NCBI GenBank assembly: GCA_011364925.1
Contig: RDOA01000018.1
Span: forward strand, 1-64,000
DNA from: Promethearchaeota archaeon
GTDB lineage: Archaea > Asgardarchaeota > Lokiarchaeia > Sigyniarchaeales > SOKP01
DNA length: 64,000 nt
Direction: 5' to 3'
The notes beneath the pieces were generated by a model that saw nothing but the letters and a program-made list of their open reading frames with translations, was not told the DNA's origin and ran no database searches. Of the stretch, positions 22,196 to 42,745 are shown one piece after another (within the stretch, counting starts at the first letter, position 1; every line of letters begins with the position of its first letter). The translations under genes were made by a program, and so were the position numbers.

Positions 22196-22636
22196 CTATG
22201 CTTCGTATTGAATAGGCTCAATAGCCCCTTCAGGACAAGATAATTCGCATTTAAGACATCCTTGACATTTGGAAATTTCACTATACTTGTATCTAATTCC
22301 AAGTTCTTTTCCCTTAACTCCTGATACATCATCTTTATAAAATAGATTTTGTGGACAAAATTTTCCGTTTTCATCTAAACATTTTTCACACAAATTGCAT
22401 TTTTCATGATCAATCTTTATACTAACCACTTGATTGGCACGTGTGATAGAAGTTACCTGAACTGCGTTTCTTGGACACACCATAACACAACTAAGGCAAG
22501 CTTTACATTTTGCGTAATCTACTTTTCGAACCCCATGCTCAAAGTAGATTGCATTAGCTTTACATGCGCGTAAGCATCGCTCACACCTTAAACATTGCTC
22601 CTGATCTATCTGAACTGGGATGAAAGTTTCTTTGAT
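22196..22636 (-). CDS. Polyferredoxin with four Cys cluster motifs, apparent ATC start
   Basis: Electron-transfer protein. The frame holds four cluster motifs in order: CLRCERCLRAC, CKACLSCVMVCP, CNLCEKCLDENGKFCP and CQGCLKCELSCPEGA, the third with a longer final spacing. The first ATG in frame (22481-22483) falls inside the second motif and cannot be the start. The frame is open up to a TAA at 22643-22645, and between them there is no ATG, GTG or TTG. ATC 22634-22636 lies eight bases after GAAGGT (22645-22650) and gives (M)KETFIPVQIDQEQC, a normal ferredoxin N-terminus. So initiation at AUC is proposed; a sequence error is the alternative. Partner oxidoreductase unknown; convergent with the NUDIX gene. 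Confidence 0.85.
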   Translation of the reverse strand: MKETFIPVQIDQEQCLRCERCLRACKANAIYFEHGVRKVDYAKCKACLSCVMVCPRNAVQVTSITRANQVVSIKIDHEKCNLCEKCLDENGKFCPQNLFYKDDVSGVKGKELGIRYKYSEISKCQGCLKCELSCPEGAIEPIQYEA

Positions 22637-22759
22637 ATGGCCTTACCTTCTCAAATTACCTATTCTAAAACTAGAAATAATCAACAAATTTTAAAATTAG
22701 GTTTTATAAAAAATTAAGTTGGTTGCTCAAAATCATAACCTAAAAAATGAGAAAAAAAA

Positions 22760-41100: not shown

Positions 41101-41307
41101 TTATCTCTCAATCTGGAAATTTACTTGTACACGAACTCGGTAAATGAGTTTGTCCTGATCTTCTTTTACTTTCACATCAGATTCAACAATTTGGATGTTT
41201 CTGATACCACGAAGTGATTTTTTAGCTTCTTCATAAGCGTTTTTAACCGCATCAGCCCAATTTTTATCGCTTGTGGCAACTAACTGAATACTTTTATATA
41301 CAGTAAT
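41101..41307 (-). CDS. Dodecin, apparent ATT start
   Basis: 68 residues, too short and lacking a standard start, so easily missed. Translation reads (M)TVYKSIQLVATSDKNWADA ... VQVNFQIER, matching the dodecin family from end to end. Dodecins are dodecameric flavin or CoA stores. The only codon at the right position is ATT 41305-41307. AAGGTG (41315-41320) lies seven bases upstream, and an in-frame TGA at 41314-41316 rules out a longer protein. The flavin-stacking Trp of halobacterial dodecin appears to be Asn37 here, so the ligand may differ. An inverted repeat lies 27 bases upstream of the start. Confidence 0.9.
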   Translation of the reverse strand: MTVYKSIQLVATSDKNWADAVKNAYEEAKKSLRGIRNIQIVESDVKVKEDQDKLIYRVRVQVNFQIER

Positions 41308-41333
41308 TTTATTTCACCTTCTGAAATTTATTG

Positions 41334-41467: not shown

Positions 41468-42745
41468 CTATGCATCGATATTTTCGATTAAAGTAGCAAT
41501 ACCTTGACCGCCACCGACACAGGCGTTAGCTATTCCATATTTTGCTTTCTTGTCCTTTAAAATACGGGCTAATGTGCCGGGGAGTCTTATCATAGTAGCA
41601 CCAAGTGGATGCCCAATTGCTGTCGAGCCGCCCATCACATTTACTTTTTCTTCGGGAATGTTAAAGTGGTTCATACAGTTTAAAGCCACAATCGTGAACG
41701 CTTCATTAATTTCCCAGTAATCTATGTCATCAGCAGTCAATCCAGCGTGCTTTAGTGCCATTTCAGTCGCTGGTACAGGACCACGACCCATCACACTAGG
41801 ATCGACACCAGCCCAACCAAGCGAAACTATTCTTGCCATGGGCTCCAATCCTCGCTTTTTCGCCTCTTCAGCTTCCATCATAAGACAAGTTGTAGCACCT
41901 GCATTCAAGGGAGAGGAATTACCTGCTGTGATAACTCCTTCCGTAGTTCCTTCTCGTTCTTTATAACCTGTTCGACCTCCATTTTTCTCCAAATAGAACG
42001 GTTTTGATAATCTTCGCAATCCAGCAACGCTTTCAAGAGAAGACTTTCTAGCAGCCATATCCTTATCAATCATCATTGGTGCTTCGATATTCCCTTCTTC
42101 ATGCCCCTCAATAGGGATGATTTCACCGTCAAACCAGCCAGCTTCTTGGTTGTCAACAGTCAAGTTGTGAGCTCTCACTCCAAATTTGTCCAAATCTTCC
42201 TTGGTGAATGTTGGGATTTCTTCCTCGTATAATTTTTGAGCCGTTTGCAACATATTGATAGTAGTCATAATGTCATACTGCGGTCGATACCATTCGCTTT
42301 TCTTATTAATCATTTTTAAATTTGGATTAATATGCGTATTTTGCATATCAACGCGTGTCATATGTTCAACTCCACCCGCTAAACAGATTTTACTATAGCC
42401 TGTCATTATTTCCATGATTCCAACATGCATCCCAGCCCCAGCAGATCCACATTGTTTGTCAACGAACATTGCTGACACATTCACTGGAAATTCTGCTAGA
42501 AAAAGTGGAAGTCTACCGCCATAAGTCCAGTTTTCATAGACACCCATAGCAGTACCAACTGTAAATTCATCAACATCCTTTTTCTCAACACCCTTATCAG
42601 CTAATTTTTGGTCAAAAAACTTGTTCAATAATGTCGCTAATAGTTCATCGCTTCTGATTTCCCCAAAAACATCTCGTTCTGGTTGTTTTGGTCGGGATCT
42701 AGAAAAAGCTGTTCGTGCGTAATCAACTAACCAAACTTCTTTCAT
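41468..42745 (-). CDS. Acetyl-CoA acetyltransferase (thiolase)
   Basis: 425 residues of the thiolase family, which condenses or cleaves acyl-CoA units. Nucleophile Cys99 lies in VDKQCGSAGAG, the active-site loop is NEAFTIV, GGSTAIGHPLGAT supplies the His, and ANACVGGGQGIA the second Cys. All catalytic residues are present. It resembles archaeal and degradative thiolases rather than the short HMG-CoA-linked type; no DUF35 partner gene is adjacent. GAGGT lies ten bases before the ATG. The gene stands alone and has a palindrome upstream. Confidence 0.94.
   Translation of the reverse strand: MKEVWLVDYARTAFSRSRPKQPERDVFGEIRSDELLATLLNKFFDQKLADKGVEKKDVDEFTVGTAMGVYENWTYGGRLPLFLAEFPVNVSAMFVDKQCGSAGAGMHVGIMEIMTGYSKICLAGGVEHMTRVDMQNTHINPNLKMINKKSEWYRPQYDIMTTINMLQTAQKLYEEEIPTFTKEDLDKFGVRAHNLTVDNQEAGWFDGEIIPIEGHEEGNIEAPMMIDKDMAARKSSLESVAGLRRLSKPFYLEKNGGRTGYKEREGTTEGVITAGNSSPLNAGATTCLMMEAEEAKKRGLEPMARIVSLGWAGVDPSVMGRGPVPATEMALKHAGLTADDIDYWEINEAFTIVALNCMNHFNIPEEKVNVMGGSTAIGHPLGATMIRLPGTLARILKDKKAKYGIANACVGGGQGIATLIENIDA

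What the first reader, a model, noticed from the sequence alone, without database searches (positions are those of the whole stretch)
41101..41320. Dodecin gene with ATT start behind a good Shine-Dalgarno, missed by standard ORF rules
A complete 68-residue dodecin is encoded, AAGGTG lies seven bases before ATT, and TGA lies three codons upstream of it, so no other start is possible without losing the first strand. This is the clearest of the three non-AUG cases.
Basis: seen in the sequence. Interest (0 to 1): 0.7.

Follow-up and report, generated by a model that had tools for sequence, protein, structure and literature searches.

The report
Lokiarchaeal genes starting with AUU
In this Asgard archaeon the dodecin gene really does begin with ATT instead of ATG, relatives share this unusual start, and so does the gene for the protein that polices start codons, which hints at a built-in self-control of translation.

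Summary
The dodecin (- strand, 41101-41307; Pfam PF07311) has no ATG, GTG or TTG at its 5' end; ATT sits seven bases after AAGGTG. It is not an assembly error: 9 of 17 same-genus genomes with a dodecin have ATT or ATA at that column and 8 have ATG. The ATT/ATA group is under strong purifying selection. It is not isolated. In 26% of the host genome, SD-anchored ORFs lacking a canonical start carry ATT/ATA/ATC at the start position in 19 of 36 cases (3.7 expected). The window's polyferredoxin, an MGMT, a FAD-synthetase-like gene and a longin-like gene (ATT or TTT) show conserved non-canonical starts in the genus. The gene of aIF1, the factor that rejects non-AUG starts, itself lacks any canonical start in 34 of 83 assessed Asgard loci (23 of 29 in this family), while aIF1A has one in 30 of 30. 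Best reading: SD-assisted AUH initiation, with aIF1 probably autoregulated as bacterial IF3 (infC, AUU) is. AUH initiation is strongly supported by sequence; control by aIF1 is inferred and unmeasured.

The parts
41101..41307 (-). dodecin CDS read from ATT (68 codons plus stop)
   Evidence: orthologue start column
41305..41307 (-). ATT start codon
   Evidence: ATT or ATA in 9 of 17 same-genus genomes with the gene, ATG in 8
41315..41320 (-). Shine-Dalgarno AAGGTG, 7 nt before ATT
   Evidence: SD 5-mer upstream in 9 of 9 distinct ATT/ATA dodecins, 6 of 24 distinct ATG dodecins
41314..41316 (-). in-frame TGA overlapping the SD; excludes any upstream start
22196..22636 (-). polyferredoxin CDS read from ATC; second non-AUG gene of the window
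   Evidence: start column ATC/ATT/ATA in 15 of 18 close orthologues
22634..22636 (-). ATC start codon of the polyferredoxin
22645..22651 (-). Shine-Dalgarno AGAAGGT of the polyferredoxin
41468..42745 (-). upstream neighbour, thiolase-like acetyltransferase with ATG start (named by eye from its sequence, not searched)

Best explanation
The dodecin is translated from AUU (initiation most likely with Met), with the ribosome positioned by the AAGGTG Shine-Dalgarno. It belongs to a set of roughly dozens of genes in this lokiarchaeal genus that use AUU, AUA or AUC (rarely UUU/UUC) behind an SD. Such starts should be weak and sensitive to the stringency set by aIF1. Because the aIF1 gene itself starts at AUU/AUC/AUA/CUG in many Asgard families, aIF1 most likely limits its own synthesis (excess aIF1 rejects its own start; a shortage relieves it), and dodecin and the other AUH genes are expressed under the same threshold. 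Shown by sequence: absence of canonical starts, conservation of the AUH column, purifying selection, strong SD. Inferred: that initiation occurs there, that Met is inserted, and any control by aIF1.
For: Dodecin column ATT/ATA in 9 of 17 genus genomes, named MAGs of several studies among them; pN 0.037 against pS 0.631 among the nine, start codon excluded. SD duplex stronger for ATT/ATA than ATG dodecins, -8.5 vs -5.2 kcal/mol, 9/9 vs 6/24 with an SD 5-mer. Polyferredoxin 15 of 18 AUH; longin-like 18 of 18 genus loci ATT or TTT while 6 of 6 other-family loci have ATG/GTG/TTG; MGMT AUH at the column in 13 of 17, 7 with no upstream canonical codon; FAD-synthetase-like 13 of 19. Host census, 1.018 Mb: 19 AUH of 36, expected 3.7, p 2.9e-10; control distances 2-7 of 30-38. 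aIF1: no ATG/GTG/TTG before the Zn motif in 34 of 83 assessed loci, 23 of 29 in the host family, no ATG in any of those 29; aIF1A canonical in 30 of 30. aIF1 of the host has about 195 nt of upstream non-coding sequence and a divergent neighbour, so no upstream gene to couple to. Other archaeal aIF1 destabilises initiation complexes on non-AUG mRNA (PMC6237735, passages).
Against: No protein, RNA or ribosome-profiling data. Eight genus members use ATG for the same dodecin, so AUU is not required. An unconditioned SD census shows only a weak AUH excess (ATT 21 vs 14.5, ATC 10 vs 5.1, ATA 14 vs 9.4 expected), and at GGT+stop ORFs the AUH count at the start index is 11 of 46 against 2-9 (mean 5) at six other indices. 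Another genus of the same family (G034, 200 kb) gave 0 AUH of 4 and another family (G042) 1 of 7, so outside the genus mainly aIF1 and the polyferredoxin of one further genus show it. The host aIF1 start lies 14 nt from its SD core rather than 10-12 (inspection). The aIF1 loci are not a random sample.
Confidence: 0.65

Rival explanations
1. Lax initiation without regulation: this lineage simply tolerates AUH starts when the SD is strong, and they drift in and out.
For: ATG and ATT/ATA alternate among close relatives of the dodecin (tree); the genes have mixed functions; AUH starts come with strong SDs.
Against: aIF1 stands out against aIF1A in overlapping sets of genomes (34/83 vs 0/30, Fisher p 3.6e-6, not corrected for relatedness); the polyferredoxin column never shows ATG in 18 close orthologues.
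Confidence: 0.3
2. Sequencing or assembly error at the start codon.
For: Window and relatives are mostly metagenome assemblies (record titles).
Against: Same codon class at the same column in nine species from several projects, and in five further genes.
Confidence: 0.01
3. Another start is used: GTG inside the SD followed by a frameshift, or an internal codon.
For: GTG occurs inside AAGGTG, with GTG AAA TAA or GTG AAT TAA/TGA in most AUH dodecins. In six MGMT orthologues an in-frame GTG lies three codons upstream, and in four FAD-synthetase-like orthologues an out-of-frame ATG precedes an A-run.
Against: The out-of-frame GTG lies in the SD itself, and the short-frame stop is absent at that place in L008/L041; no canonical codon before index 46 in the host; an internal start there would remove most of a 68-residue protein.
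Confidence: 0.04
4. A dedicated initiator tRNA (or Ile-tRNA) reads AUH starts.
For: The tRNA survey found only 24 genes, many with introns, so an extra one could be missed.
Against: The one initiator-type tRNA seen has the usual CAT loop and the GGG/CCC stem, as in outgroups; UUU starts would need yet another reading.
Confidence: 0.05
5. The dodecin is a dying pseudogene that lost its ATG.
For: No canonical start; two relatives have a broken or unresolved frame (L056, L029/L057).
Against: Open frame in all nine AUH species, pN/pS 0.06 at pS 0.63.
Confidence: 0.01

Closest known systems
Bacterial infC (IF3), AUU start, autoregulated (E. coli ATT, Streptomyces ATC; PMC5472188, passages)
   Same: The gene of the start-codon fidelity factor has a non-AUG AUH start, which makes negative feedback possible.
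   Different: The factor here is aIF1 (SUI1 family), not IF3, in Archaea; the feedback is not measured; other AUH genes accompany it.
Streptomyces sigR, GTC start repressed by IF3 (PMC5472188, abstract start and passages)
   Same: An ordinary gene placed under the fidelity factor through a rare start codon.
   Different: One gene there; here a set of genes, with AUH codons and strong SDs, and no experiment.
Eukaryotic eIF1 autoregulation through an AUG in poor context (as cited in PMC6237735, passages)
   Same: Homologous factor (SUI1), possible control of its own initiation.
   Different: The eukaryotic gene keeps AUG; the host family has no ATG at all before the Zn motif.
Dodecin family (PF07311)
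   Same: Whole-length profile match; best solved relative 3onr.
   Different: Non-AUG start; flavin binding not examined.

Membership tests
Dodecin (PF07311) | profile match over the curated cut-off, full length | tested here: met
   64.1 bits against 22.5, profile 1-64 of 64
Dodecin (PF07311) | flavin-stacking tryptophan (recalled feature of flavin dodecins) | not tested
   only a solved relative was found, the site was not compared
infC-type self-limiting initiation factor | gene encodes the start-codon fidelity factor | tested here: met
   PF01253 match, single copy in the host; the function is known for other archaeal aIF1 (PMC6237735)
infC-type self-limiting initiation factor | its own start is not AUG, GUG or UUG | tested here: met
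   host and 22 further loci of the family; 34 of 83 assessed Asgard loci
infC-type self-limiting initiation factor | excess factor represses its own translation through that codon | not testable with these tools
   needs reporters or factor titration
infC-type self-limiting initiation factor | homologue of IF3 | tested here: not met
   the protein is SUI1/aIF1; it may work like infC but is not a member
eIF1-type autoregulation | AUG in poor context as the sensor | tested here: not met
   no in-frame ATG before the Zn motif in any of 29 host-family loci
Non-AUG (AUH) initiated gene | conserved AUH codon at the orthologous start column with SD and no canonical alternative | tested here: met
   dodecin; polyferredoxin
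Non-AUG (AUH) initiated gene | N-terminal peptide or ribosome footprint at the codon | not testable with these tools
   no such data available here

The most novel reading that the evidence does not exclude
Asgard archaea control translation through a start-codon thermostat: aIF1, whose own gene starts at AUU/AUC/AUA/CUG, sets its level by rejecting its own start, and a set of AUH (even UUU) started genes, dodecin among them, is turned up when aIF1 is scarce. The self-control of eukaryotic eIF1 would then have a prokaryotic forerunner, convergent with bacterial IF3.
Probability: 0.45. Interest if true: 0.9.

Novelty: new variant of a known kind. Interest (0 to 1): 0.78.

Why it matters
Gene finders that accept only ATG/GTG/TTG would miss or truncate dozens of genes here, including a core initiation factor. 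If aIF1 limits itself through a non-AUG start, the logic known for bacterial IF3 and eukaryotic eIF1 is present in the archaea closest to eukaryotes, and start-codon stringency before scanning evolved becomes testable. Conserved AUU/AUA/AUC, and probably UUU, starts in an archaeal genus were not described in anything listed by my literature searches (open-licence papers only).

Tried and rejected
Assembly error, pseudogene, frameshift from the GTG in the SD, and a changed initiator tRNA were considered and given low weight (see rivals). An unconditioned SD-anchored codon census was too noisy, because few genes of this organism have an SD; conditioning on the absence of canonical starts sharpened it. 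Widening the spacing to 10-14 nt diluted the signal (11 of 32, expected 3.3). A rule of 'AUH whenever SD' fails: many SD genes start with ATG. For the polyferredoxin I dropped 11 distant or paralogous loci (L099-L109) and one truncated locus (L097) before counting, 18 of 30 loci kept. For aIF1 I dropped four of 87 loci: three where no Zn motif was found and one partly masked. In one search ORFs containing N were dropped (5,220 N in the sample); a few of the 19 AUH ORFs look spurious by eye (short ones) and were kept in the count. The SD/anti-SD energies use a recalled archaeal 16S 3' end, and sequences related by descent were counted apart. The Fisher and Mann-Whitney tests are not corrected for relatedness.

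Full report
Observation. On the - strand the window reads AGAAGGTGAAATAAAATTACTGTATATAAA. The stop TGA lies inside the SD, two codons (AAT AAA) follow, then ATT. The frame is a complete dodecin (PF07311, E 1.5e-17), single copy in the host genome, and holds no ATG/GTG/TTG before codon index 46.

Relatives of the dodecin. One search covered 58 genomes; 42 have a dodecin, among them 17 of 24 of the host genus. At the column of the ATT these 17 have ATT in 7, ATA in 2 and ATG in 8. Of the 30 loci given: 9 AUH, 15 ATG at the column, 4 ATG one codon upstream, 1 TTG, 1 unresolved frame (L029). Of the 29 named genome-contig loci, all titled Lokiarchaeota or Lokiarchaeia MAGs: 8 AUH, 19 ATG, 1 broken frame (L056), 1 unresolved (L057); they largely repeat the same genomes. 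The nine AUH sequences differ at pN 0.037 and pS 0.631, start codon excluded: an old, constrained gene. In the tree ATG and AUH species are interleaved, so the codon has changed more than once, or the 67-codon tree is not resolved.

Compensation by the SD. Every distinct AUH dodecin has an SD 5-mer (9 of 9; mean duplex -8.5 kcal/mol), against 6 of 24 distinct ATG dodecins (-5.2; Mann-Whitney p 0.0002, Fisher p 0.00013). MGMT shows the same (12 of 12 against 1 of 6). The longin-like gene and the FAD-synthetase-like gene differ in energy only (p 0.035 and 0.008), not in SD 5-mers. Sequences are related by descent, so these p-values are indicative.

Other genes. The window's polyferredoxin (22196-22636, -) has ATC; among 18 close orthologues the column is ATC 3, ATT 11, ATA 1, TTT 2, and one uses ATG two codons upstream. 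The longin-like gene of contig C20 (named by eye) has TTT in 8 and ATT in 10 of 18 genus loci, and ATG (4), GTG (1) or TTG (1) in 6 of 6 loci of other families. A methylguanine methyltransferase has AUH at the column in 13 of 17 genus loci; 6 of these also have GTG three codons upstream. A FAD-synthetase-like gene (Pfam CTP_transf_like) has ATA or ATC without alternative in 13 of 19 genus loci; in four of these an out-of-frame ATG followed by an A-run leaves a slippage alternative.

Census in the host. In 1,018,127 bases (26% of the genome, 1,010 ORFs) I took ORFs with an SD core 10-12 nt upstream of a codon and no ATG/GTG/TTG from the upstream stop to 12 codons beyond. Of 36 such codons 19 are ATT/ATA/ATC (expected 3.7, p 2.9e-10) and 5 are TTT/TTC. 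Other distances gave 6 of 38, 2 of 36, 2 of 35, 7 of 33, 6 of 31 and 4 of 30. The first 618 kb gave 11 of 16. A different family (G042, 220 kb) gave 1 of 7 and another genus of the host family (G034, 200 kb) 0 of 4 at a wider spacing. Members by Pfam: two MGMT genes, universal stress protein, TetR regulator, D-aminoacyl-tRNA deacylase, thioredoxin-like protein (TTC); by eye a small GTPase. Weaker results are told under evidence against.

aIF1. Looking for the cause I examined the fidelity factor. In the host its frame reads AAAGGTTGTGA AAA AAG AGT ATT AAA GAC GAC GAC ATT TGT, with no ATG/GTG/TTG before the conserved Zn-type cysteine motif. A divergent small GTPase gene lies upstream and about 195 nt of non-coding sequence separates them. 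I collected 87 aIF1 loci: the best-scoring ones returned by two searches plus 30 that I chose to cover genera and families, so not a random sample. 83 could be assessed: 34 have no canonical codon before the motif, 19 only GTG or TTG, 30 at least one ATG. In the host family it is 23, 6 and 0 of 29. The candidate start is ATT, in one case ATC, at one column through most of that family. In other families it is ATA behind AGGAGG (f12, f13), ATA (f2, f5, f7) or CTG (f8, f25), by inspection. A paralogous aIF1 in G004, G012 and G018 has an in-frame GTG inside its SD. The control factor aIF1A has ATG, GTG or TTG in 30 of 30 loci.

Initiator tRNA. The pattern GGGCTCATAACCC finds one initiator-type tRNA in the host and matches in 19 of 57 other genomes (exact match only, so absence means little). 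Its body is like that of outgroups, with CAT. Nothing suggests a recoded initiator, but the tRNA list is incomplete.

Mechanism. Shown by sequence: AUH columns, missing alternatives, constraint, strong SD, and the aIF1 anomaly. Inferred: initiation by Met-tRNAi on AUH, helped by the SD, and rejection by aIF1. In other archaea aIF1 destabilises initiation complexes on non-AUG mRNA (PMC6237735, passages read). IF3 does so in bacteria and its gene infC starts with ATT in E. coli and ATC in Streptomyces, with autoregulation; Streptomyces sigR (GTC) is repressed by IF3 (PMC5472188, passages). A review notes that SDs are not prevalent in the lokiarchaeon Prometheoarchaeum (PMC7531240, passage), which fits the rarity of SD-anchored starts here. 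I therefore favour a self-limiting aIF1 with a set of AUH client genes, and give the regulatory part about even odds.

Novelty. Seven searches of an open-licence library listed no paper, by title and start of abstract, on AUH starts in Asgard archaea or on a non-AUG aIF1 start; I read passages of five papers only. The kind (non-AUG start of an initiation factor) is known from bacteria; the factor, domain and breadth are new to me.

Noticed in passing
L229 (host contig C44) and L228, L230, L231, L233, L235, L236: The initiator-type tRNA of the host and several genus members diverges after the anticodon stem where others run straight into the T arm, suggesting an intron in or near the T arm.
   Followed up: partly
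L079:18383-19027 and orthologues L130-L137: TTT stands at the start column of a longin-like gene in eight genomes, ATT in ten; a UUU start would be stranger than AUU.
   Followed up: partly
L247, L253, L255: G004, G012 and G018 hold a second, diverged aIF1 whose SD contains an in-frame GTG.
   Followed up: no
L058 and L056: The dodecin of one relative matches in two pieces with an insertion, and that of another has a broken N-terminal frame.
   Followed up: no
L124:13291-13623 and L123:2232-2816: Two MGMT-type genes on host contig C21 both have AUH starts.
   Followed up: partly
L413 (host contig C112:21310-21873, - strand): A small GTPase (by eye) with ATT behind GGAGGAGGT and no canonical start nearby.
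   Followed up: no
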